NCBI GenBank assembly: GCA_013824245.1
Contig: PNNN01000058.1
Span: forward strand, 1 to 63,987
From: Chlorobiaceae bacterium
Lineage (GTDB): Bacteria; Bacteroidota; Ignavibacteria; UBA10030; SZUA-254
Length of the DNA: 63,987 bases
Direction: 5' to 3'
This document shows, piece by piece, positions 54,439 to 63,987 of the stretch. The notes beneath the pieces were generated by a model, which was not told the origin of the DNA, searched no databases, and worked only from the letters and a program-made list of their open reading frames with translations. Numbering within the stretch: the first letter of the stretch is position 1; each line of letters opens with the position of its first letter. The translations under genes were made by a program, and so were the position numbers.

Positions 54439-55380
54439 ATGTTAGAAGTTAAATCTATAAAAATTATTAATCCTGTCCCGAAATTTTTCGAGACGGTTCG
54501 CCATGAGATGCGGCTAAGAAACTACTCGAACAAAACGATAAAAGCATACATCAGTTGTTTGCGTTCTTTTGTAAAATATTTTTCACCGAAGCATCCACGG
54601 AATCTAACTGAAGATGATATTAAAAAATATCTTCTGCATTTATTGATGGTTGAGAAAAGGTCAGCGAGTTCTGTAAATCAAGTATTTAACGCGCTCAGGT
54701 TTTTGTATGTAGAATTATACAAGATGTCGTACATCATCGGTAAACTTCCGCGACCGATGAAAGAGAAAAAATTACCCGATGTTTTAAACGAGGGCGAAGT
54801 GCTGAGAATATTCGGAATTGTGACGAATCTGAAACACCGGACGATGTTGATGCTTGCATATGCAAGCGGATTGCGGGTTAGCGAATTGGTACGATTGCGA
54901 ATAGAAGATATCGACGGTCAGCGGAACCTCATTCATATTCGTGATGCAAAAGGAAAGAAGGATCGTTATACTGTATTCCCACAATCATTGCGTGCACAAC
55001 TTATAACATACTGGAAAACGTATAAACTCGGTACACGCGGATGGTTGTTCCCCGGAGAAAAACTGGATAAGCACTTAGCTGTGCGTAGCATTCAGTCGGT
55101 ATTGACGCGAGCGATCCGGGCAAGCGGTATTACGAAGCCGGTTTCGATGCATTCGTTACGGCATTCGTTTGCCACGCATCTGCTTGAGCACGGAACAGAT
55201 TTGAGATATATACAAGCATTACTTGGACACCAGAGTGTGCGGACGACGGAAGTGTATACACACATAAGCGCCAAAGGGCTTGGACAGTTACGAAGCCCAC
55301 TTGATTTTCTGAAGATGAAAGACGAACATATTTTACCAGGCAAAACTCAGAAACTGCTTAAATCTGGTAATAAACAATGA
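54439..55380 (+). CDS. Tyrosine recombinase, IntI-like but lacking the IntI-specific insertion
   Basis: The 313-residue recombinase has an N-terminal SAM-like core-binding domain (residues about 15-95, RLRNYSNKTIKAYISCLRSF) and a catalytic domain with Arg146, Lys171, His238, Arg241, His264 and the nucleophile Tyr273. Several features recall integron integrases: the RLRNYS start, RHSFATHLLE and the ending LGQLRSPLDF. The extra helix that IntI proteins carry between patches II and III is absent: PQSLRAQLITYWKTYKLGTR runs directly to GWLFPGEK and then MHSLRH. It is co-directional with the array, which begins 41 bp after its stop. It may be the array's integrase or a Xer/phage-type enzyme that only neighbours it. 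Confidence 0.88.
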   Translation: MLEVKSIKIINPVPKFFETVRHEMRLRNYSNKTIKAYISCLRSFVKYFSPKHPRNLTEDDIKKYLLHLLMVEKRSASSVNQVFNALRFLYVELYKMSYIIGKLPRPMKEKKLPDVLNEGEVLRIFGIVTNLKHRTMLMLAYASGLRVSELVRLRIEDIDGQRNLIHIRDAKGKKDRYTVFPQSLRAQLITYWKTYKLGTRGWLFPGEKLDKHLAVRSIQSVLTRAIRASGITKPVSMHSLRHSFATHLLEHGTDLRYIQALLGHQSVRTTEVYTHISAKGLGQLRSPLDFLKMKDEHILPGKTQKLLKSGNKQ

Positions 55381-55397
55381 AACTAAAAAAAATAAAA

Positions 55398-55428
55398 ACG
55401 CAATATTGCGTAATTCCCGATGTTAGTT
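55398..55428 (+). other. Candidate attI site
   Basis: The 41 bp between the recombinase stop and the first cassette core (GTTAGTT at 55422-55428) contain a perfect 14-bp palindrome ACGCAATATTGCGT at 55398-55411. A site at this place must serve as attachment point for the first cassette if the array is active. No second core-type site is obvious. Confidence 0.5.
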
Positions 55429-55456
55429 GCCATTGCCCATAATAGAGCGAAGAAAG

Positions 55457-55966
55457 ATGAACGAATTGAACATTGGAACATCGGGAGTCATTCGGCCAAT
55501 CAATGGTGAATCGAAGTTTTCGTTTTCACTCAAGAACCTTCGGTTGATAACTCTTCAAGATTGGCCACCATATGATCCAACTCCAGTAGGTTGGTATCAA
55601 GCGGAAAAGGAAATGAATAAACACTGGGATTTATTGTCATCGATTCCTATATGGTGCCCTTATCCGGTTCAGGCTTACTGTGTCGGTGCTGCCCAAGCTC
55701 CAAGCCTCGTTGATGCGCTCTCACGCAGTGGTGGAGTCATCAGTTCATTATTGCAAGACAGCATTGATGAATACCTTAAGGTTCACGTTCGATATTTTCT
55801 GTTTCCACTCGCTGAACCCATGTATCAAGACCAGGCGGTCGGTCAACTCATCTGTGAAACACTCCCCGATTCTGAACGTGGCGAGGTCAGAGCATGGGTG
55901 GATGCTCTGCACCCCAACGAGCTCTCGGAAACCAATCGGCGTGATATCAAGAATGCTCTAGTTTAG
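55457..55966 (+). CDS. Cassette 1 ORF 1, unknown protein
   Basis: The 169-residue protein begins MNELNIGTSGVIRPING and is preceded by GCGAAGAAAG. An in-frame TTG start at 55427 is less likely because it would lie inside the cassette core. It is acidic with many Trp and Pro in the N-terminal half (LQDWPPYDPTPVGWYQAEKE) and a helical C-terminal half. No motif is recognised. Confidence 0.7.
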   Translation: MNELNIGTSGVIRPINGESKFSFSLKNLRLITLQDWPPYDPTPVGWYQAEKEMNKHWDLLSSIPIWCPYPVQAYCVGAAQAPSLVDALSRSGGVISSLLQDSIDEYLKVHVRYFLFPLAEPMYQDQAVGQLICETLPDSERGEVRAWVDALHPNELSETNRRDIKNALV

Positions 55967-56025
55967 AATATGCAATCAAAGTTAAACTCATTCAAAAACA
56001 AATCTCACTGAGAAAGGATTCAGTC

Positions 56026-56235
56026 ATGTCGAATCAAGAGACCACAATGTTGTACTGCAAGGCGCCAGGATGCAGCCAGAAAAGAGCTGAAGGTGATACC
56101 AGTTGGGGTCCGACACTGATGTACAGATGCACTAATTGCGGCGACACGTATTGCAGCGACCATGCCGCACACGGTCGACGGAATTTCCCGTGTCCATCTT
56201 GCGGTCAACCTGCTCTAAGAGATATCAACAAGTAA
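56026..56235 (+). CDS. Cassette 1 ORF 2, zinc-binding small protein
   Basis: The 69-residue protein has cysteine pairs CKAPGC, CTNC and CPSC, plus C and H residues in TYCSDHAAHG, enough for two zinc knuckles like those of AN1-type or B-box fingers. It may bind protein or nucleic acid. Ribosome site AGAAAGGA lies before the ATG. It is followed 18 bp later by another Cys-rich gene. Confidence 0.7.
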   Translation: MSNQETTMLYCKAPGCSQKRAEGDTSWGPTLMYRCTNCGDTYCSDHAAHGRRNFPCPSCGQPALRDINK

Positions 56236-56253
56236 ATCGAAAGGAGACTTTTA

Positions 56254-56508
56254 ATGCCAAACCACAAATCCGAAGGACAATGCCCATCGTGCGGGAAGAC
56301 CATCATTCTTGGTACCTGCACGCATATGAAGAAAAGTCTTTTCGGCGGCGAAAAGCCATGCGGTTCCAAGGGGTTCGAATGGAAAGAAAGCAATTTGGTC
56401 TGCGTTGGCTGCAACACGATTTTTTCTAAAGTGAATTGTCCTGAATGTAAGAATGATGTTTCGGTTAAGATTTTCGAGCCGAAAAGATTCAGGGACGTTT
56501 TCAAATAA
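56254..56508 (+). CDS. Cassette 1 ORF 3, double zinc-ribbon protein
   Basis: The 84-residue protein has three CxxC pairs: CPSCGKT at the start, CVGC in the middle and CPEC near the end, typical of paired zinc ribbons. Ribosome site AAAGGAGA lies upstream. The middle part contains FGGEKPCGSKGFEWK. Function unknown; it probably forms a set with the flanking Cys-rich proteins. Confidence 0.7.
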   Translation: MPNHKSEGQCPSCGKTIILGTCTHMKKSLFGGEKPCGSKGFEWKESNLVCVGCNTIFSKVNCPECKNDVSVKIFEPKRFRDVFK

Positions 56509-56531
56509 TAACACGGTGAAAGGAACGAAAT

Positions 56532-56681
56532 ATGTCGAAGAAAGTCTGTCCAGTGTGTGATGGCACTGGAAAGTGTCCAACGTGTCACGGGCACGGCGGC
56601 GGGTTCAGTTACGTTTGCAAAACCTGTCATGACACAAAGAAATGCCCTCGATGCAAAGGCGAAGGCGTTGTTCACAATTAG
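56532..56681 (+). CDS. Cassette 1 ORF 4, DnaJ-type CxxCxGxG zinc finger protein (49 aa)
   Basis: This short frame, ATG at 56532 and TAG at 56679-56681, encodes 49 residues starting MSKKVCPVCDGTG. Four CxxC pairs (CPVC, CPTC, CKTC, CPRC) occur, three of them followed by G or H spacings as in the DnaJ central zinc domain (CDGTGKC, CHGHGGG, CKGEGVV). AAAGGAACGAAAT precedes the ATG. It ends 13 bp before the start of the attC1 arm. The three Cys-rich genes in one cassette suggest a shared function. Confidence 0.65.
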   Translation: MSKKVCPVCDGTGKCPTCHGHGGGFSYVCKTCHDTKKCPRCKGEGVVHN

Positions 56682-56696
56682 GATTTGGGCAACGGC

Positions 56697-56829
56697 AACT
56701 AACACCGACAAAGCACGACGTTCGCTCTATCATAATGTATTATTGTGCTCACTCAATTGTTTTTGGCACGAATGAATTGGTCGTTTGATAGTGCCAAAAA
56801 CAAATGCGTGCTTTGCGGAAACGTTAACT
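56697..56829 (+). repeat. attC1
   Basis: Core boxes AACTAAC (56697-56703) and GTTAACT (56823-56829) flank L boxes CAAAGCACG / CGTGCTTTG; an extra A interrupts the left L arm (CCGACAAAG against CTTTGCGG). The centre holds a perfect 13-bp inner hairpin TTGTTTTTGGCAC / GTGCCAAAAACAA (56757-56769, 56791-56803). Confidence 0.88.
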
Positions 56830-57910
56830 GCAATTGCCCATTTATGATCAGAGAATACTTTGCCTAGGACTGAACTACTGTGATATATTGTTGTTTCATT
56901 TTGTACTTTTTATTCACTATCTATCTTCGATATTATTGTATGTAAAATTTTAACGACCGTCAAAGAATTGGATCACAGTATGAATTATGCGTACACCTTT
57001 AATTTTAATAAACTTAAATAAACGAAATGCTTTTAAAAATTCATTAACTAAACAAATATACAAGAAAGGAAAAACAATGATCAGAATAAGTACAATTTGT
57101 TTTATCGCCCTCATGCTCCTTATAGTTGTAGGGGATTTATTATCACAGTACAATATCACCACAGGAGGAACGATAGGTGGGGCCGGTGTAATAGTGGGAA
57201 TCGGAAATATGGACAGTGATACTGATTCAGAAATAATAGTTGTTGAATGGTCAACTGACTATTACGTTTATGTCTTTTCTGGTGCAACAGGAATACTCAA
57301 ATACAAATCCCCCGCTTTTAATGGCATATATTTATCAACCGTATATTTTTCTAGCTCTACCGGTTACTCACAAAGCGCAAATATGCCTAGTAGTCTCCAA
57401 GACGTTGACAACGATGGTAAGTCTGAATTCTGTTTTGTTGGCAAATATTCTGGTGAAAGTTCTAAATTGTACATACTACAAAGCTCCGATGGGACATCTG
57501 TTTATGAAACAAAACAATTCCCTATACAGTCACAAGTATCCCAGAATTATCCAAATCCTTTCAATCCTTCCACAACAATCGAATACTCTACACCAATTAA
57601 GACCGAAGTACAAGTAAATATATTCAATGAAATAGGGCAATTAGTACGTAACCTGTACAACGGAGTAGTTGAATCAGGGAATTATAGTTTGAGTTGGGAT
57701 GGAAAAGATAATAATGGTCTCTCTCTCAGTAGCGGTATTTATTTCTATCAAGTGACAGTTGGTGAAGATGCACAGACAAAAAAAATGATCTTACTAAAAT
57801 AAGCGGGCAACTGCAGTTAACAAGGCAAAAAACGTAAAATGAAAAAATATTTCGCTCACGATAAATTTGTTTATAAGAGTTCACTCCATATTTTCGTTTT
57901 TTGCCAAAAC
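56823..57910 (+). mobile_element. Cassette 2 (secreted type IX sorted protein)
   Basis: It starts GTTAACTGCAATTGCCC; the end (57805-57821) is its inverted complement over 17 positions with one mismatch at position 11. The 250 bp between the start core and the gene hold no other frame. It ends in attC2. Confidence 0.85.
57077..57802 (+). CDS. Secreted protein with type IX sorting domain (cassette 2)
   Basis: The 241-residue protein has a signal peptide (residues about 2-22, ending LLSQ). The N-terminal body contains NMDSDTDSEIIVVEW and QDVDNDGKSEFCFVG, which resemble FG-GAP/VCBS calcium-binding repeats. The C-terminal sorting domain reads SQNYPNPFNPSTTIEYSTP ... NEIGQLVRNL ... GKDNNG ... KKMILLK. 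Start chosen at 57077 because AAAGGAAAAACA precedes it; a longer frame from 56987 lacks a ribosome site. A cassette encoding a type IX cargo only makes sense in a host with that secretion system. Confidence 0.8.
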   Translation: MIRISTICFIALMLLIVVGDLLSQYNITTGGTIGGAGVIVGIGNMDSDTDSEIIVVEWSTDYYVYVFSGATGILKYKSPAFNGIYLSTVYFSSSTGYSQSANMPSSLQDVDNDGKSEFCFVGKYSGESSKLYILQSSDGTSVYETKQFPIQSQVSQNYPNPFNPSTTIEYSTPIKTEVQVNIFNEIGQLVRNLYNGVVESGNYSLSWDGKDNNGLSLSSGIYFYQVTVGEDAQTKKMILLK

Positions 57911-57917
57911 GTTAGCC
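57815..57917 (+). repeat. attC2
   Basis: Core boxes AGTTAAC (57815-57821) and GTTAGCC (57911-57917) flank L boxes GGCAAAAAACG / CGTTTTTTGCC, perfectly complementary, with asymmetric spacers (2 nt left, 5 nt right). Confidence 0.9.
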
Positions 57918-58732
57918 AAAATTGCAGATACAATTATATTCGTTTTGTGGCGCATGGCTTAGTCTTTAGAACGAAGTCGCCACCAGATTCTGATTCTGTT
58001 TCCAAATAGTATAATAAAATAAGCCAACATCGTGCCCACACACACAAATAATGGTAGTACCATCATATAGAAAGCAAATGTGTTATGTTTGATTTGAAAT
58101 TCGATCCAGTTATATATGTCTCTTTGGGTGCTATCCTTGGAATCGCTGGTTTGAAACTGTTTGAATTCCTTTTTAGTCTGTATAGAGATAATAGACAAGA
58201 ATACCGTACTTCCTATGCAAAGTTTGCCGAGTCTTTCTCTTCGTTCCTTCAGCAGTTGGAGATGGGTCCAGCCACCCTCAATCTTCTTATTGTCGAAGAT
58301 TTCCCGAAACATGATTTGGCTCGGCGAGATTTTGAACGATACCTCTCTCGTCGCACCAAAGGACGATTTTATCGTAAATGGTTGGAATACGAAGAAAAGT
58401 ATTATCAGGTAAAGCAACTTGGTATCATGGGTATGGCGGTTGCTCTTGCTCCACCCGGATTTGATCTTCGGACATCTCGACCAACACCCGAAGATATGAT
58501 TCAATGGGAATTCGACAGAAAAAAAGAACTTCGTGGCATCATTCACGAATTGCTTGAGATAGTAGAACCATAGTGCAAACTTCGCTGAGTTAAAAACATG
58601 CGCCACAAAACTTTTGATTATAGAACTGCAACTTCGTCTAACACGGCAAAGTACGCCGTTGACACTAAATGCCTCTCTCACTTTACATGGTTCTATTTTA
58701 TGTTCGTTCGTCATTTCGTACTTTGCCGATTC
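57911..58732 (+). mobile_element. Cassette 3 (162-aa protein, two-block terminal repeat)
   Basis: Start GTTAGCCAAAATTGCAG pairs with the end (58626-58642) over 17 positions with mismatches at 6, 8 and 11. A second block, positions 32-46 (57942-57956, GTTTTGTGGCGCATG), pairs perfectly and in the same register with 58597-58611. Confidence 0.85.
58085..58573 (+). CDS. Membrane-anchored cassette 3 protein of unknown function
   Basis: The 162-residue protein has one N-terminal membrane segment (residues about 9-31) and a charged, helical cytoplasmic part: YRTSYAKFAESFSSFLQQLE, EDFPKHDLARRDFERYL, RTKGRFYRKWLEYEEKY and ELRGIIHELLEIVEP. The even spread of Lys, Arg and Glu and the gene's fit inside the cassette favour this frame over the antisense frame at 57959-58837, which would cross attC3. 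No function is recognised. Confidence 0.75.
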   Translation: MFDLKFDPVIYVSLGAILGIAGLKLFEFLFSLYRDNRQEYRTSYAKFAESFSSFLQQLEMGPATLNLLIVEDFPKHDLARRDFERYLSRRTKGRFYRKWLEYEEKYYQVKQLGIMGMAVALAPPGFDLRTSRPTPEDMIQWEFDRKKELRGIIHELLEIVEP

Positions 58733-58739
58733 GTTATAA
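58636..58739 (+). repeat. attC3
   Basis: Core boxes GTCTAAC (58636-58642) and GTTATAA (58733-58739) flank L boxes CGGCAAAGTACG / CGTACTTTGCCG, perfectly complementary. Confidence 0.88.
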
Positions 58740-59132
58740 GTCATTGTGGCGTTCACAGTCAGGGTGTTTATAACGTGTCGCTTGGTTTTAAAAATTATGT
58801 TTCGTACAATTTTACATGGGATTATGGTTTTGTTCATTCTATTTGGTTTTTATTGGTATTGATGTATTCGCACTTTGATGGTTTTCGTTAATTAGAGGAA
58901 AGTGATTTTGGTTTTACAATATTTTTTCCCAAGAAATTAAAAGAATGGTCAGTGAGTATTTACTACTTCCAGTTTATTACCTTACGCCACAACGAACTTA
59001 TAACACGTAAAATAACGACACTCGATGTTTAACGATTTTAAAACAAACGCTTCGCTTAATAGTTCAATGCCGCTGCTCACAATAATAAATTCTATTTCGA
59101 GTTCGCAGCAGCATTGCGTTATTTTACGAAGC
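58733..59132 (+). mobile_element. Cassette 4 (no long gene)
   Basis: Start GTTATAAGTCATTGTGGCGT pairs with the end (58984-59004) with one bulged A (58995) and the position-11 A/C mismatch. In 400 bp no frame of normal size exists. The best candidate is a 21-codon frame from ATG 58797 encoding a hydrophobic peptide (MFRTILHGIMVLF...) without a ribosome site. The cassette may carry a peptide, a promoter or an RNA. Confidence 0.75.
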
Positions 59133-59139
59133 GTTATGC
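58998..59139 (+). repeat. attC4
   Basis: Core boxes TTATAAC (58998-59004) and GTTATGC (59133-59139) flank L boxes CGTAAAATAACG / CGTTATTTTACG. An inner hairpin pairs CAATGCCGCTGC (59065-59076) with GCAGCAGCATTG (59105-59116), one mismatch. Confidence 0.88.
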
Positions 59140-59947
59140 GCCATGCGCAAGGTTCCTTTTAAAATATAAATAACATTAATTAACATTAAGAAAATACCCA
59201 TGCCATTCTTGCCTGCTATTTGTACGAACCCACAATGTGGTCTGGTATTCGAGTCGCCCATAGATATGAAGGGTACTGGTAATATATTCATTAATTTCCA
59301 ATATGGAATTTGTCCCAAATGCCAGATGGCTGGCAGAATTCCCGACGGAGAATATAGTGGCTTGGGTGATAAATTATTTGCAATATTCTTTAACATCTCA
59401 GATTTATCAATTCTTAAAAATTATATTACTTTTTTATCAGACCAGTTACGTTCTGGTAGTTCGCCAGAAATAATTAAGACATCAATTAATACAAAATTTC
59501 CATTATTAAAATCTCTCTCTGATCTTATTCCTAAAACTCGTGCCGATGCTTATGCTTTCATTAGTATAATGATAATGCTAATAAGTTTGGCACTTGATTG
59601 TTCCGATAAACTAAAAACTAAAGAACCACCCATCCAAGTTAAACAAGATATAATTAATCAATCTTTTCAAAATTTTTACATTTCGGGTGATTCTGTAAAT
59701 GTCTATGTTCAGTCAGAGCACCATACAACATCGCCAAACAAATAAGTATGGCAACTTGAAGAACTATGGGTAGTATTTGCATAAACATATTTTTATTCCT
59801 TATAAAATTTATATTTTAAAAACAATTAAACAGATTAACTTGCGCACGGGCGCATAACAAGGCAAAAACTGTAAAATGAAAAATTGCTACACTCATATTA
59901 AATTTGTCTGTCATAATTCGTTCCGCAATTTCAGTTTTTGCCAACAC
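59133..59947 (+). mobile_element. Cassette 5 (zinc-ribbon protein)
   Basis: Start GTTATGCGCCATGCGCAAGG pairs with the end (59839-59858), with one bulged G and the position-11 A/C mismatch. It ends in attC5. Confidence 0.85.
59200..59745 (+). CDS. Cassette 5 protein with N-terminal zinc ribbon and membrane segment
   Basis: The 181-residue protein starts with a probable four-Cys zinc ribbon (C8 and C13 in CTNPQC, then CPKC near residue 38). A helical middle part (NISDLSILKNYITFL...) is followed by a hydrophobic segment AYAFISIMIMLISLAL (about 117-132) and a C-terminal tail with QNFYISGDSVNVYVQ. I do not recognise the family. It could be anchored in the inner membrane. Confidence 0.72.
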   Translation: MPFLPAICTNPQCGLVFESPIDMKGTGNIFINFQYGICPKCQMAGRIPDGEYSGLGDKLFAIFFNISDLSILKNYITFLSDQLRSGSSPEIIKTSINTKFPLLKSLSDLIPKTRADAYAFISIMIMLISLALDCSDKLKTKEPPIQVKQDIINQSFQNFYISGDSVNVYVQSEHHTTSPNK

Positions 59948-59954
59948 GTTAGGC
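59852..59954 (+). repeat. attC5
   Basis: Core boxes GCATAAC (59852-59858) and GTTAGGC (59948-59954) flank L boxes GGCAAAAACTG / CAGTTTTTGCC. The left arm and adjacent loop closely resemble attC2 (AACAAGGCAAAAA...GTAAAATGAAAAA). Confidence 0.9.
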
Positions 59955-60591
59955 GGCATGGCCGCCCGCCGGGACTATCGGTGGTCGTAACGATTCCGGC
60001 CGCAAAGTCAAAACAAGTCTGCAATTATGTTCAGGTCCGGCAATGAACTCAAGAGATCCAAAACTTGTTGCGCTCCAATTCAATGAGTGCATTAACAACC
60101 AGGATCTGAACGGACTCGCTCTTCTCATGACCGACGATCATGCATTCATCGATCGCGAGGGGAAGGTCAGTCAACCCAAACAGACTATGGTTCAAGGCTG
60201 GAAACAGTTTTTCGAAATGTTCCCGAAGTACAGGAATACTTTCAATCGCATTCAATCCAAGGACAATCACGTCACCATTCTTGGCTACGCTTATTGGTCA
60301 GAAAAGGAGCCGTACGATCCAGTAATCTGGACTGCAACGATCGTCAACGATCTGGTACAAGAGTGGCGCGTTCATGTTGATACAGAAGCGAACAGAAAAC
60401 AATTCGATCTCCTTTGAACGTCGGCGGGCGGCCACGACCGCCTAACAAACGGCAACACGGCGCTCGCACCTTGGATAGGCGATGTTGAAACAATGTTTGG
60501 CTAAATGAAAAGTGCTCGCTCCATTGCTCGCCGCCAGAGCAATCGACGATCAGTTCGATGCTGGCGGCTCGCAACGGCGTGTTGCCTAAAC
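59948..60591 (+). mobile_element. Cassette 6 (SnoaL-like protein)
   Basis: The 644-bp cassette starts GTTAGGCGGCATGGCCGCC and pairs with its end (60422-60446) over 24 positions with one bulged A (60437) and the position-11 A/C mismatch. A near-identical but deleted copy is cassette 8. Confidence 0.88.
60043..60417 (+). CDS. SnoaL/NTF2-like protein (cassette 6)
   Basis: The 124-residue protein has the NTF2-like fold layout: an N-terminal helix (KLVALQFNECINNQDLNGLALLM), TDDHAFIDREGK, a central helix VQGWKQFFEMFPKYRNTFNRI and four strands ending VQEWRVHVDT. Asp/His residues in TDDHAF line the pocket in enzymes of this fold, but many members only bind ligands. No strong ribosome site precedes the ATG. 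The gene is deleted in cassette 8, where only MNSEIQNL and a stop remain. Confidence 0.8.
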   Translation: MNSRDPKLVALQFNECINNQDLNGLALLMTDDHAFIDREGKVSQPKQTMVQGWKQFFEMFPKYRNTFNRIQSKDNHVTILGYAYWSEKEPYDPVIWTATIVNDLVQEWRVHVDTEANRKQFDLL

Positions 60592-60598
60592 GTTATGC
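60440..60598 (+). repeat. attC6
   Basis: Core boxes GCCTAAC (60440-60446) and GTTATGC (60592-60598) flank L boxes GGCAACACG / CGTGTTGCC. An inner stem GCCGCCAG / CTGGCGGC lies in the centre. Confidence 0.88.
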
Positions 60599-61181
60599 GC
60601 AATATTACTATAATTTATGACTAACAAATATGGAATCCCAAGTGACGAATTGCTAAGAATTCGTGCTAGAGATAAAAACTGTGTGTATTGCCACAAAGAA
60701 ATGATTTTCCCCTTCATCCCAAAAAAACATAAAGATTGCGCAACTATCGAGCATTTAAATTTTGATGGACCATTTTACTGGGACGAAGATCTGCAAATAG
60801 AGGATGTTGTAATTTGTTGCGGGAGCTGTAATTCAAGTAGAGGTGCAAAGAAATTGTCAGAATGGTTTAGGACGAAATACTGTATTGCAAGAAATATTAA
60901 TGAAAATACTGTAGCTGACCCAGTCAAAGAATATTTAACACGCAAAAGAGAAAAGTGTTAACTCACATTAATTTGAAAGCCCCAATTAATACTGCGCATA
61001 ACAAGCGGCTTACACGTTCGCTTCCGCGCCAGCGGAAGCGTGAGTACTTAGACAGCAGTTTACGCGAACGCTGGCGCGTTCGCACATGGCGCTCTTTGAG
61101 ATATTAGTCTTGGTGGTAACGTAAGTTTAACTACCACCTATTCGGCGGTAGACTTCGCGCCATGTCGTGTAGCCGCGGCGC
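60592..61181 (+). mobile_element. Cassette 7 (HNH-type protein)
   Basis: Start GTTATGCGCAATATTA pairs with the end (60987-61002) over 16 positions with only the position-11 A/C mismatch. It ends in the long attC7. Confidence 0.86.
60617..60961 (+). CDS. HNH nuclease-like protein (cassette 7)
   Basis: The 114-residue protein has the zinc-supported HNH layout: CVYC at 22-25, the first His in ATIEHLNFDG, and CCGSCNSSRGAKKLSEW containing the second Cys pair and Asn. HNH domains nick or cut DNA and occur in phage, restriction and recombination proteins. The gene starts 25 bp after the cassette core with no ribosome site visible. It is not adjacent to any methylase, so a restriction role is not implied. 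Confidence 0.78.
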   Translation: MTNKYGIPSDELLRIRARDKNCVYCHKEMIFPFIPKKHKDCATIEHLNFDGPFYWDEDLQIEDVVICCGSCNSSRGAKKLSEWFRTKYCIARNINENTVADPVKEYLTRKREKC

Positions 61182-61188
61182 GTTAGGC
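60996..61188 (+). repeat. attC7 (193 nt, richly folded)
   Basis: Core boxes GCATAAC (60996-61002) and GTTAGGC (61182-61188) flank L boxes GCGGCTTACACG / CGTGTAGCCGC, with one extra T in the left arm. The centre contains three more palindromes, including CGCTTCCGC...GCGGAAGCG and GCGAACGC...GCGTTCGC. Confidence 0.85.
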
Positions 61189-61416
61189 GGCATGGCCGCC
61201 CGCCGGGACTATCGGTGGTCGTAACGATTCCGGCCGCAAAGTCAAAACAAGTCTGCAATTATGTTCAGGTCCGGCAATGAACTCAGAGATCCAAAACTTG
61301 TAGGCGATGTTGAAACAATGTTTGGCTAAATGAAAAGTGCTCGCTCCATTGCTCGCCGCCAGAGCAATCGACGATCAGTTCGATGCTGGCGGCTCGCAAC
61401 GGCGTGTTGCCTAAAC
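61182..61416 (+). mobile_element. Cassette 8, deleted copy of cassette 6
   Basis: The 235 bp match cassette 6 except for one missing A and a 408-bp deletion equivalent to 60069-60476. The deletion removed nearly all of the SnoaL-like gene and the whole left half of attC. The lengths agree exactly (644 - 409 = 235). The right half of attC remains next to GTTATGT. Confidence 0.9.
61249..61302 (+). pseudogene. Remnant of the SnoaL-like gene
   Basis: The start region of the cassette 6 gene is kept (ATG plus a few codons reading MNSEIQNL and then a stop). A one-base deletion shifts the frame and the rest is missing. It cannot encode a functional protein. Confidence 0.85.
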
Positions 61417-61423
61417 GTTATGT
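61395..61423 (+). repeat. attC8, right half only
   Basis: GGCGTGTTGCCTAAACGTTATGT is the right L and R box of attC6, with no left partner in this cassette. It cannot fold into a complete attC, so cassettes 8 and 9 would have to move together. Confidence 0.8.
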
Positions 61424-62210
61424 GCCATGCGGCATGTTATCGCATTATAATTAAAATTAAATAGGAGTGATGTTTTTATGTTGAAGTTTTTATTTGTTAT
61501 CTCAGCGTGCATTACGCTTTCATCATGCTCTTCGAGCCATTACGTGCAAAAGCAAGGTAATGAAATTACAGTTGCCCTTGATTCTTTAAATTGGTATCTG
61601 TCCTTTCCAGATGATGATTACGTAGTCGAAAAGGAACAGATTAGTTCTGATCACAAATCAGGTTATTTCCTATTTACCCACCATTCAAATTTTCCCATTG
61701 ATACGTTATTCACCGTATCTTTCTTTATCGAACCAATAAAAGGTTGTATTGATGCAAAATGTTGTCGTGATAAAGCGTGGGAAAAAGAAAAAACTAGATT
61801 GAAAAATCATACTGATGTTCAGCTATCGGAAATTGGCGAAGCTGCAACTTTTGAGTATACTCTACCTGATTATTTTAATTACAGAAGTATGAATGCACAT
61901 TTTTTCCATGAGGGTTATTGGATTGATATGCACATCTCAAGAATGTTATATGAAATCGGTTCGCAACAATCCTTTGTCAACTTGGTAAAATCTATTAAAT
62001 TATTACCGAAGGCAGATTTAATGAATACTGTAATTCGCTAAGTTCAGTAGTGCTTCATTCATATCCACCGCACGGCACATAACACGCATAAAAATGAATC
62101 AGAAAATTAACAAATTAAAATCTAACGTCTCGCTCTATGGAACATACCGCTTGCCACAAGAAAATATGTCTGTTTATAATGGCAAACGGTACGTCATTTT
62201 TATGCGAGAC
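61417..62210 (+). mobile_element. Cassette 9 (lipoprotein)
   Basis: Start GTTATGTGCCATGCGG pairs with the end (62068-62083) over 16 positions with only the position-11 A/C mismatch. It ends in attC9. Confidence 0.86.
61478..62041 (+). CDS. Cassette 9 lipoprotein of unknown function
   Basis: The 187-residue protein has a lipoprotein signal peptide with lipobox LSSC (Cys17). The mature part contains WYLSFPDDDYVV, FTHHSNFPIDTLFTVSFFIEP and a Cys-rich stretch CIDAKCC. Its C-terminal segment LVKSIKLLP resembles that of lipoproteins that keep a PsbP/DUF-type fold. It is probably membrane-anchored in the periplasm. AGGAG lies upstream of the ATG. Confidence 0.72.
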   Translation: MLKFLFVISACITLSSCSSSHYVQKQGNEITVALDSLNWYLSFPDDDYVVEKEQISSDHKSGYFLFTHHSNFPIDTLFTVSFFIEPIKGCIDAKCCRDKAWEKEKTRLKNHTDVQLSEIGEAATFEYTLPDYFNYRSMNAHFFHEGYWIDMHISRMLYEIGSQQSFVNLVKSIKLLPKADLMNTVIR

Positions 62211-62217
62211 GTTATAT
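62077..62217 (+). repeat. attC9
   Basis: Core boxes ACATAAC (62077-62083) and GTTATAT (62211-62217) flank L boxes CGCATAAAAATGA / TCATTTTTATGCG. The inner hairpin pairs TACCGcTTGCCA with TGGCAAaCGGTA. Confidence 0.88.
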
Positions 62218-63069
62218 GAAATGCGATTCTTGGAAAAAAGGTAGCATTGATTCCATGTGCAAAGCTTCTTTACTATTTTTCATAGTCATTAGCTTGAACA
62301 CTCAAGTTTATTCCCAGAGATACTTTGAATTCGGAAACAGGGTTTATCAAAGCGGCGAGAATTTTGTTGCTGTTACTTCAGATTCTGCTGAAATCTTGGT
62401 CATAGAAGCACAGCTTACTCTACCTGAGAGCCTGAGAGATAGACATATACATGGGATCCTTGCTCACGGGAATCCGGGTTATAATCTCACATGGCATTGG
62501 CATTTCATACCTAATCAATGGCGTGTCGTGGAGACTTCAGTTGAAGTTTGCGATGGACTGCCATCATGGATAGAGAGAGATACAGCTTTGTGGACAGATG
62601 GATGGATTTTCTGTCCATGGTCATCTTATCTACTGAGGGAAGTATCACCTAACAGCGTGATGGAAAGGGGTGAGATCCAATTATCTTCCCTGATCTATCC
62701 CAATCCAACCCAGGGAACATTCAGTGTCGATTTTTTAGACCCTTTGAATAGTCAGACGTCAATAACAATCTACAATATTCTCGGTCAGATGATCTACAGT
62801 AAGTCTTTCTTTGCGCCTTATCATGAGCAGATGCAAATCGACATTTCGAAACTACCAAGTGGGGTTTATTATTTACATGTAAAGTCCGGATATAAAATCC
62901 TGACACAAAAACTTCTCAAACAATGAACAAGAATCGCACTTCATATAACACCGAAAAAGCACGACACTCACTTTTTATGATAGAATATTATTGTGTTCGT
63001 TCAACAGTTTTGCTCACAGAAAATTTATCTATTTATAGTTCGCAAAACTGCTGCGTGCTTTTCGGAAAC
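62211..63069 (+). mobile_element. Cassette 10 (secreted type IX sorted protein)
   Basis: Start GTTATATGAAATGCGATTCT pairs with the end (62928-62949) over 22 positions with only the position-11 A/C mismatch, one of the longest terminal repeats in the array. Confidence 0.87.
62216..62926 (+). CDS. Secreted protein with type IX sorting domain (cassette 10)
   Basis: The 236-residue frame begins at an ATG inside the cassette core (GTTATATG). A second ATG at 62255 gives a cleaner signal peptide (CKASLLFFIVISLNTQVYSQ) and may be the true start. The body is beta-rich with several Trp. The C-terminal tail LIYPNPTQGTFSVDF ... ITIYNILGQMIYSK ... LPSGVYYLHVKSG is a type A sorting domain. It is the second cassette here that carries a type IX cargo. 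Confidence 0.8.
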   Translation: MKCDSWKKGSIDSMCKASLLFFIVISLNTQVYSQRYFEFGNRVYQSGENFVAVTSDSAEILVIEAQLTLPESLRDRHIHGILAHGNPGYNLTWHWHFIPNQWRVVETSVEVCDGLPSWIERDTALWTDGWIFCPWSSYLLREVSPNSVMERGEIQLSSLIYPNPTQGTFSVDFLDPLNSQTSITIYNILGQMIYSKSFFAPYHEQMQIDISKLPSGVYYLHVKSGYKILTQKLLKQ

Positions 63070-63076
63070 GTTATGC
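62943..63076 (+). repeat. attC10
   Basis: Core boxes ATATAAC (62943-62949) and GTTATGC (63070-63076) flank L boxes CCGAAAAAGCACG / CGTGCTTTTCGG, with one extra A in the left arm. The inner hairpin is CAGTTTTGC (63005-63013) / GCAAAACTG (63042-63050). Confidence 0.9.
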
Positions 63077-63108
63077 GAAAGCGGCACACGGAGAAAGGTG
63101 AGAGTTGA

Positions 63109-63825
63109 ATGAAGTCAAATCCGAAAGTAACTCAATTCCAACGAGACTGCTTTGCCAACTATCTACCTGACATTCAGAAGAAAGTCGGCGGTTTTCCAAA
63201 CCCATATTTGTATCCCGACGGTAATCCAATTCGGCCAGTCGTACCAGTCCAAACGACGCTCAACAAAATAATGTTGGTCGGTGCTTTTCCATCGGCTCGA
63301 TTTGAAAGAAGAAATGCTAAGCTCATACCCATTGGCGACAATCTCGCTCCTTTTGGACCCGAACATTATTTCGATGGATTTCAAGTCAGAGTCCAAGAAT
63401 CAACCGAGAGTCTGCACAAGAACTACTTCCCGCAACTTGGAATCGAGCGAAGCGACTTGTGGATCACCGACATCGTAAAGGTCTACCTGTATCCTGAGAA
63501 GCACCTCAAGAATTTTCCATCGTCTAGCTTCGTCGATACTCACACTCTATTTCCGGAGATTGCAGACGCAAGCCGAGATTGGTTTATTAGAGAACTCGAC
63601 GTATGCAATCCCAAGTTGATAATCACTCTCGGCGAGGTTGCCGCAAGGGTCGTCGCTCAAACGAAACCACTATTGGACGGCGTCATTCGAGACTTGTCCT
63701 ACGGAAACAAGCACAAGGTTGTGCATCTGGCTCATCCGGAAATTCGCCGTCGTAACAAGGACTGGGATCGACGCACTTCGACCCATCTGGGTAAGTTGGC
63801 AAAGCAGATCAAAAAGTACGTGTGA
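63109..63825 (+). CDS. Uracil-DNA-glycosylase superfamily-like protein (cassette 11)
   Basis: The 238-residue protein shows the order of motifs seen in the UDG fold: IMLVGAFPSARFERR in the position of the GEAPG loop, PFGPEHYFDGF, DLWITDIVKVY, PKLIITLGEVAARV and HLAHPEIRRR in place of the terminal HPS loop. Members remove uracil or other bases from DNA, or bind it. The exact catalytic residues cannot be matched by eye, so activity is open. AAAGGTGAGAG lies before the ATG. Confidence 0.75.
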   Translation: MKSNPKVTQFQRDCFANYLPDIQKKVGGFPNPYLYPDGNPIRPVVPVQTTLNKIMLVGAFPSARFERRNAKLIPIGDNLAPFGPEHYFDGFQVRVQESTESLHKNYFPQLGIERSDLWITDIVKVYLYPEKHLKNFPSSSFVDTHTLFPEIADASRDWFIRELDVCNPKLIITLGEVAARVVAQTKPLLDGVIRDLSYGNKHKVVHLAHPEIRRRNKDWDRRTSTHLGKLAKQIKKYV

Positions 63826-63839
63826 AGTGTGCCGCCTTC

Positions 63840-63987
63840 GCATAACACGGCAAACAACGACACTCGCTCATTTGATATGACAATGTTGAAGCTCAGCAAG
63901 AAAATCAGTTGTGCTCGTTCCACCGTTTTGCTCACGAGAAATTTGTCATTTGATAGTTCGCAAAACGGCGGCGTTGTTTGCCGAGAC
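63840..63987 (+). repeat. attC11 (right core missing at window end)
   Basis: The left core GCATAAC (63840-63846) and L boxes CGGCAAACAACG / CGTTGTTTGCCG are present. The inner hairpin is CCGTTTTGC (63923-63931) / GCAAAACGG (63960-63968), with loop sequence similar to attC10. The window ends at GAGAC, the usual spacer before GTT, so a further cassette should begin at the next base. Confidence 0.88.

What the first reader, a model, noticed from the sequence alone, without database searches (positions are those of the whole stretch)
55422..63846. Cassette ends are extended inverted repeats with an invariant A/C mismatch at position 11
For ten intact cassettes I paired the first bases (starting at the G of GTT) with the last bases (ending in AAC). 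Pairing runs for 16-23 positions, not just the 7-bp core. In all ten, position 11 from the G is A at the start and C at the end on the + strand: 55432/56693, 56833/57811, 57921/58632, 58743/58993, 59143/59847, 59958/60435, 60602/60992, 61427/62073, 62221/62939 and 63080/63836. Cassettes 4, 5 and 6 also have one extra base next to it. Because the flanking bases vary freely but co-vary with their partners, the mismatch seems to be kept on purpose. On the bottom strand the same pair is G.T, a wobble, so bottom-strand folding would be favoured. The long arms meet only when a cassette is circular, so they could mark the circle for integration or control which strand is used.
Basis: seen in the sequence. 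Interest (0 to 1): 0.95.

Follow-up and report, generated by a model that had tools for sequence, protein, structure and literature searches.

The report
Mismatch-marked gene-cassette ends, unusual integron
The ends of every gene cassette in this bacterial gene-collecting array can zip together with one fixed mismatch that favours one DNA strand, and the same mark occurs in hundreds of related arrays whose recombinase lacks a protein part thought essential for integrons, so it looks like a second, overlooked way of running an integron.

Summary
All ten cassettes have self-complementary ends (15-23 pairs), with A at start position 11 and C at the matching end position. It generalises: 83 of 88 cassettes from the same order pair over at least 11 positions (median 18), and 73 of those 83 carry the A/C. 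In distant members of the phylum, 82 of 85 do. Pairing with the neighbouring cassette is at background, so the stem exists only when a cassette's own two ends meet. Canonical integrons pair only about 3 bp past the 7-bp core, with no fixed mismatch. The mismatch is G.T on the bottom strand, which folds more stably (76 of 83).

The adjacent tyrosine recombinase lacks the I2 helix ("patch") considered necessary for integron recombination; its clade is sister to canonical IntI if Xer is the outgroup. These sites co-occur with this recombinase, not with canonical IntI. A second A/C, dyad-symmetric in the L arm, was found in the distant sites.

Best reading: the arm is the outer half-site of a folded attC read by an I2-less integrase, with the G.T wobble acting as strand/fold mark in place of I2 and extrahelical bases. 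Anatomy and conservation are shown; function is inferred. I found no published description in the open-access library.

The parts
54439..55380 (+). integrase gene: tyrosine recombinase of the I2-less (patchless) clade, 313 aa, same direction as the cassettes
   Evidence: TIGR02249 235.9 bits, below cut-off 265, split in two stretches; alignment gap at the I2 patch with catalytic R, K, HxxR, H, Y present; KDR-to-HxLRH spacing median 62 vs 103 in canonical IntI
55381..55421 (+). putative attI region between integrase stop and first cassette; holds inverted repeat ACGCAATATTGCGT at 55398-55411
   Evidence: first cassette starts 42 bp after the stop; similar block in relative L034
55422..55443 (+). 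cassette 1 start arm, A at 55432
56683..56703 (+). cassette 1 end arm, C at 56693
56823..56845 (+). cassette 2 start arm, A at 56833
57799..57821 (+). cassette 2 end arm, C at 57811
57911..57937 (+). cassette 3 start arm, A at 57921
58617..58642 (+). cassette 3 end arm, C at 58632
58733..58752 (+). cassette 4 start arm, A at 58743
58984..59004 (+). cassette 4 end arm, C at 58993, one extra base
59133..59151 (+). cassette 5 start arm, A at 59143
59839..59858 (+). cassette 5 end arm, C at 59847, one extra base
59948..59971 (+). cassette 6 start arm, A at 59958
60422..60446 (+). cassette 6 end arm, C at 60435, one extra base
60592..60607 (+). cassette 7 start arm, A at 60602
60987..61002 (+). cassette 7 end arm, C at 60992
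61417..61432 (+). cassette 8 start arm, A at 61427
62068..62083 (+). cassette 8 end arm, C at 62073
62211..62232 (+). cassette 9 start arm, A at 62221
62928..62949 (+). cassette 9 end arm, C at 62939
63070..63089 (+). cassette 10 start arm, A at 63080
63827..63846 (+). cassette 10 end arm, C at 63836
56697..56829 (+). attC 1 (R'' to R')
   Evidence: finder, covariance model R1
57815..57917 (+). attC 2
58636..58739 (+). attC 3
58998..59139 (+). attC 4
59852..59954 (+). attC 5
60440..60598 (+). attC 6
60996..61188 (+). attC 7
61182..61416 (+). deleted second copy of cassette 6 with its attC remnant; identity to the first copy starts 1 nt before GTT
62077..62217 (+). attC 8
62943..63076 (+). attC 9
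63840..63987 (+). attC 10, cut off by the contig end

Best explanation
This is the cassette array of an integron-type system whose tyrosine recombinase lacks the I2 helix. The long cassette ends are the outer (R) half-site of its folded attC. Shown by sequence: (1) start arm and end arm of one cassette are complementary over about 15-24 bp; (2) they do not pair with neighbours, so the complete stem forms only when a cassette's own ends meet, as in an excised circle or a looped-out single strand; (3) position 11 is A at the start and C at the end in nearly every cassette of the family, giving G.T on the bottom strand and A.C on the top; (4) distant sites carry a mirror A.C mismatch in the L arm, placed symmetrically about the spacer. 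Inferred: the integrase binds the folded bottom strand at two half-sites of roughly 11-15 bp and reads the G.T wobble about one helical turn from the cut (G^TT) in each. The wobble tells a folded bottom strand from the top strand and from ordinary duplex, the job done in canonical integrons by extrahelical bases and the I2 helix. The complete arm exists in the circle and not in the array, so it should favour capture of the circle, or pull excision forward.
For: Own-only pairing in 10/10 window cassettes, 83/88 order cassettes at 11 or more pairs and 85/92 distant cassettes at 10 or more. A/C in 73/83 and 82/85 of these, and in 29 of 46 candidate cassettes of IMG/VR contigs. Bottom strand more stable in 76/83 and 78/85; bottom outer stem -17.9 kcal/mol with own ends vs -6.7 with the array neighbour. 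In distant Bacteroidota the arm stops sharply at 15 bp, as a footprint would. L-arm A and C are invariant in the 17 aligned distant sites, and over 145 L arms A/G mismatches number 194 vs 3 G/A. Homologous cassettes with 32-55% identical proteins keep pairing after changes on both sides. The integrase lacks I2 and the sites co-occur with it, odds ratio 30-41 in the order and 11.8 in the phylum, p 6e-21, but not with canonical IntI. Identity of a duplicated cassette starts at GTT. Canonical controls lack the trait.
Against: No experiment: neither single-strand recombination nor circles are shown for this family. Outside position 11 the arm mismatches show only a weak strand bias in the order set (29 vs 17, p 0.10) and none in the distant set (4 vs 4). 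A frequent L-arm mismatch at -9 (T/C, 59 cases) goes the other way. In the window-type sites the L stem ends before -18, so the mirror mismatch is not formed there, although C at -18 and -15 is still common. Full-site folding in the window favours the bottom strand even with A11 changed to G in the energy model (3.7 vs 2.6 kcal/mol), so other asymmetries such as the 1 vs 4 nt spacer also select the strand.
Confidence: 0.66

Rival explanations
1. The recombinase reads duplex half-sites: A11 in the start arm and C11 in the end arm are two separate base contacts in double-stranded DNA, and the G.T in the fold is a by-product.
For: Positions 8 and 11 are conserved as sequence in each arm independently. 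No I2 is present, and I2 is linked to single-strand recombination (PMC7790495).
Against: Positions 12-19 co-vary only within a cassette, which duplex reading does not need. One enzyme reading two duplex arms of the same kind would be expected to want the same base, not A in one and G in the other.
Confidence: 0.17
2. The mismatch only breaks a long palindrome, protecting the array from hairpin nucleases or replication slippage; the arms serve fold stability.
For: Perfect inverted repeats of this length are unstable in general (established knowledge).
Against: Identity and orientation are fixed (A start, C end, same position), and the two arms are a gene apart in the array, so no perfect palindrome exists there. 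Canonical arrays of the same order can keep 13-17 perfect pairs without a mismatch.
Confidence: 0.07
3. The arms act in RNA: transcript ends of one cassette pair and protect or separate each cassette message.
For: Arms flank each gene and could pair in a transcript.
Against: The transcript carries the top-strand sequence, where the pair is the A.C mismatch and the stem is weaker. The distant set stops at 15 bp with a dyad-symmetric partner in the L arm, which fits a recombinase site.
Confidence: 0.04
4. Mutational origin: cassettes are born with perfect arms, and a fixed bottom-strand C is deaminated to T at position 11 while single-stranded.
For: The change C to T on the bottom strand gives exactly G to A at start position 11.
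Against: 97% A at start 11 in 64 cassettes, other C positions in the same arm unaffected, and the same mark across the phylum and in IMG/VR contigs need selection.
Confidence: 0.03
5. Only the ordinary extended R box of integron cassettes, nothing special.
For: Canonical cassettes pair for 9-11 positions (PMC2727003), and some canonical ones in this order reach 13-17.
Against: No fixed mismatch at position 11 in any canonical set; different integrase clade, spacer asymmetry and L stem.
Confidence: 0.03

Closest known systems
Canonical integrons (IntI1 class 1; chromosomal integrons of Vibrio, Shewanella and others)
   Same: RYYYAAC/GTTRRRY core boxes, palindromic attC, head-to-tail cassettes, integrase gene at one end; closest solved structure by sequence is VchIntIA (2a3v)
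   Different: integrase without I2 (KDR-HxLRH 62 vs 103 residues); R arm 14-24 vs 9-11 bp; fixed A.C at +11; L stem mostly uninterrupted (median 11 vs 6) and spacer 1/4 or 2/5 instead of about 3/3; in the ten loci looked at the array follows the integrase in the same direction
Reverse-oriented integrons (Treponema denticola)
   Same: integrase co-directional with the cassettes (own knowledge; term seen in search hits PMC4909258, PMC7691350, not read)
   Different: their sites and integrases were not compared here
XerCD with the folded single-stranded attP of phage CTXphi
   Same: a tyrosine recombinase without I2 recombines a hairpin of one strand (PMC7790495)
   Different: one phage site in host dif, not a cassette array; different recombinase clade

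Membership tests
integron (canonical, IntI-based) | integrase with the IntI-specific additional domain (I2 / patch III region) | tested here: not met
   alignment gap of about 29 residues at the patch; TIGR02249 below cut-off, split into two stretches; spacing 62 vs 103
integron (canonical, IntI-based) | attC sites with RYYYAAC and GTTRRRY boxes around a palindromic core | tested here: met
   nine complete sites plus one cut off in the window, 161 distinct in the order
integron (canonical, IntI-based) | extrahelical bases on one side of the L stem | tested here: inconclusive
   96 of 175 order sites have 10 or more uninterrupted L pairs vs 3 of 60 canonical; some sites, e.g. attC 1, have a one-base bulge
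integron (canonical, IntI-based) | head-to-tail array of mobile cassettes beside the integrase | tested here: met
   ten cassettes; a second, deleted copy of cassette 6 with identity starting at GTT; site and integrase co-occur
integron (canonical, IntI-based) | attI recombined as duplex | not testable with these tools
   a block shared with a relative lies between integrase and first cassette, not shown to recombine
integron (canonical, IntI-based) | integrase belongs to the IntI clade | tested here: not met
   patchless 26 rows and canonical IntI 15 rows are each one side of a branch (95/90 and 100/99); sister only if Xer is the outgroup
XerC/XerD housekeeping recombinase | falls with Xer in the tree | tested here: not met
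   nine Xer rows form their own group, 100/100
tyrosine recombinase superfamily | catalytic R, K, HxxR, H/W, Y | tested here: met
   invariant in the alignment; fold match to XerC-like 4a8e Z 21.9 (rmsd 8.4, 261 aligned) and 2a3v Z 20.4 (rmsd 7.1, 256 aligned) (AlphaFold model, mean pLDDT 78)

The most novel reading that the evidence does not exclude
A phylum-wide second branch of integrons, also seen in IMG/VR viral contigs, folds single-stranded attC and selects the bottom strand without I2 or extrahelical bases, using G.T wobbles placed symmetrically about one helical turn from the cut. Cassette recombination on folded DNA would then predate, or be independent of, I2.
Probability: 0.5. Interest if true: 0.93.

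Novelty: new variant of a known kind. Interest (0 to 1): 0.84.

Why it matters
The current account holds that integron integrases gained single-strand recombination by acquiring I2, and that I2 is necessary for cassette capture (PMC7790495); surveys use that domain to recognise IntI (PMC9024848, PMC9668308). Here about half of 395 sampled genomes of one phylum carry attC-like arrays (189) tied to an I2-less sister clade. IntegronFinder 2.0 reports one complete integron in Bacteroidetes proper, in Salinibacter ruber (PMC9024848). A large pool of mobile genes may therefore be uncounted. The fixed mismatch also gives a simple, testable rule for strand choice and supports the cassette circle, or an equivalent joined-end form, as a stage on which selection acts.

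Tried and rejected
Rfam on 50-64 kb: no match reached a gathering score; the weak ones are chance-level. Simple attC pattern in the genome: uninformative. Whole genome as file: not available. General bottom-strand bias of arm mismatches outside position 11: suggestive at first (15 vs 4), weakened with more data (29 vs 17, p 0.10) and absent in the distant set (4 vs 4), so not claimed. First tree had two wrong open reading frames with very long branches; rebuilt without them. The canonical attC finder is less sensitive than the one for this family, so canonical counts are small (30 cassettes). Model R1 in four genomes of other phyla: no match, which shows little. Papers searched for patchless integron integrases, Bacteroidota/Flavobacteria integrons and wobble or mismatch in attC: no description found, but the library is open-access only.
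Full report
WHAT WAS CHECKED. All twenty coordinates of the finding hold: A at every start position 11, C at every matching end position. Own-end alignment gives 15-23 pairs in each of the ten cassettes; every start matches its own end best, and 0 of 20,000 permutations of ends reach the own total. Cassettes 4-6 have one extra base in the end arm.

SETTING. The region is an integron-type array: integrase 54439-55380 (+), a 41-bp putative attI stretch, then cassettes separated by attC sites of 103-193 bp. A finder that uses only AAC/GTT boxes and an inner stem finds nine complete sites on the + strand and no other; the contig ends inside the tenth. A deleted second copy of cassette 6 lies at 61182-61416, and its identity with the first copy begins one base before GTT, which agrees with recombination at G^TT.

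GENERALITY IN THE SAME ORDER. Loci around related integrases and a covariance model of the attC core (model R1, positions up to 7 of each arm only) gave 88 cassettes. 83 have at least 11 paired positions and 82 at least 14, median 18. Own pairing at positions 12-16 is 73-82%; with the array neighbour it is 26-47%, much like shuffled ends (28-45%). At position 11 the two arms match in 5%. In 64 ungapped cassettes start 11 is A in 62 and the reverse-complemented end is G in 59; position 8 is G/G in nearly all. Most of the remaining cassettes have one extra base in the end arm and still show A/G.

GENERALITY IN THE PHYLUM. Sites near more distant integrases gave model R2. It matches in 189 of 395 genomes sampled across the phylum. 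In 92 cassettes from such arrays, 85 pair over at least 10 positions and 82 of these have A/G at 11. Here the arm ends sharply at position 15 (66% at 15, 24% at 16). The same pattern occurs in arrays beside I2-less integrases in IMG/VR contigs, 29 of 46 candidate cassettes, several of the rest being joins over a missed site or variants with an extra base. Some of those contigs exceed 200 kb; their viral status is the collection's label.

L ARM. In the 17 aligned distant sites the invariant inner columns include an A on the 5' side and a C on the 3' side of the L stem. With G of GTT as +1 the C lies mostly at -18, so the L and R mismatches are symmetric about -3.5, inside the spacer. Over 145 L arms, A/G mismatches number 194 against 3 G/A (87 of them at -18); a T/C mismatch at -9 (59) goes the other way. 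In window-type sites C at -18 and -15 is common (104 and 133 of 161), but the stem opens before -18.

STRANDS. With DNA parameters the outer stem is more stable on the bottom strand in 76 of 83 order cassettes (median 1.5 kcal/mol) and 78 of 85 distant ones (median 1.0); canonical cassettes show no bias (17 vs 11, median 0.1). The bottom outer stem averages -17.9 kcal/mol with own ends and -6.7 with the array neighbour. For the whole folded site in the window the bottom strand is favoured by 3.7 kcal/mol on average, and still by 2.6 if A11 is replaced by G in the energy model, so the mismatch is one of several asymmetries. The unequal spacer (1 vs 4, or 2 vs 5 nt) is another.

SELECTION. Cassettes with homologous but diverged genes (for instance 32-55% identical proteins) carry different arms that remain paired, with changes on both sides.

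CANONICAL CONTROLS. From 80 canonical integron loci, 30 cassettes with a perfect 7-bp core pair at 80, 63, 57 and 40% at positions 8-11 and then fall to near background. This agrees with the published 9-11 complementary positions (PMC2727003). Canonical integrons of the same order reach 9-17 pairs without a mismatch fixed at 11. So longer arms alone are not unique; the fixed mismatch is.

INTEGRASE. The protein keeps the tyrosine recombinase residues but lacks the I2 region; the KDR-HxLRH spacing is 62 residues against 103 in canonical IntI and 76 in Xer. Nearest solved structures are VchIntIA by sequence and archaeal Xer and VchIntIA by fold (moderate-confidence model). In a tree of 50 proteins the I2-less group, canonical IntI and Xer are each one side of a branch; with Xer as outgroup the first two are sisters. 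The tree does not say whether I2 was gained or lost. Sites of this kind associate with the I2-less integrase (odds ratio 30-41 within 60 genomes; 11.8, p 6e-21, within 395), not with canonical IntI. The window's genome shows no other integron integrase.

WHAT IS KNOWN. I2 docks extrahelical bases of attC, is necessary for cassette capture by IntI1, and is taken as the innovation that allowed single-strand recombination (PMC7790495; PMC3053210). Strand choice in canonical sites depends mainly on the first extrahelical base (PMC2727003). Surveys recognise IntI by the extra domain (PMC9024848, PMC9668308). I found no description of an I2-less integron branch or of a conserved mismatch in cassette ends; subscription papers were not searchable.

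MOST LIKELY WORKING. Shown: own-end complementarity, the invariant A/C, the mirror A/C in distant L arms, co-occurrence with an I2-less integrase. Inferred: the integrase binds the folded bottom strand, with two half-sites each ending around a G.T wobble near one helical turn from the cut; the wobble marks the correct strand and folded state; the complete outer arm exists only in the joined-end form and so favours the circle as substrate or excision as outcome.

LIMITS. Taxon names for the window's genome are not given by the tools; phylum Bacteroidota is inferred from the company of the hits (a Chryseobacterium plasmid carries a member of the clade) and from secretion motifs in cassette proteins. 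Cassettes from related arrays are not fully independent. About 6-8% of counted cassettes are probably joins across a missed site.

Noticed in passing
61182-61416: Deleted second copy of cassette 6 beside attC 7; identity begins one base before GTT, which marks the recombination point.
   Followed up: yes
56987-57802 and 62216-62926: Two cassette genes encode short proteins with a C-terminal motif like type IX secretion sorting signals (NPFNPSTTIEY, YPNPTQGTF). Cassette 2 has relatives of 36-45% identity in other arrays.
   Followed up: partly
L274-L310 (IMG/VR contigs): Contigs labelled viral, some over 200 kb, carry I2-less integrases with attC-like arrays on the opposite strand upstream of the integrase, with the same position-11 mark.
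   Followed up: partly
L228-L240: 13 of 60 relatives hold an I2-bearing integron integrase, and some genomes hold both kinds, a natural side-by-side comparison.
   Followed up: partly
L143 9749-17829: Chryseobacterium sp. SNU WT5 plasmid NZ_CP041688 carries an I2-less integrase followed by small genes and a group II intron reverse transcriptase.
   Followed up: no
55398-55411: Inverted repeat ACGCAATATTGCGT in the putative attI; L034 has the same repeat, and L047, L042 and L036 have other short inverted repeats at the same place.
   Followed up: partly
attC sites, e.g. 62943-63076: Besides the R and L stem the window-type attC has conserved inner blocks (GACGCTC, TCGCTCAATG, GTTCGC) that fold into two inner hairpins, more structure than a simple terminal loop.
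   Followed up: no
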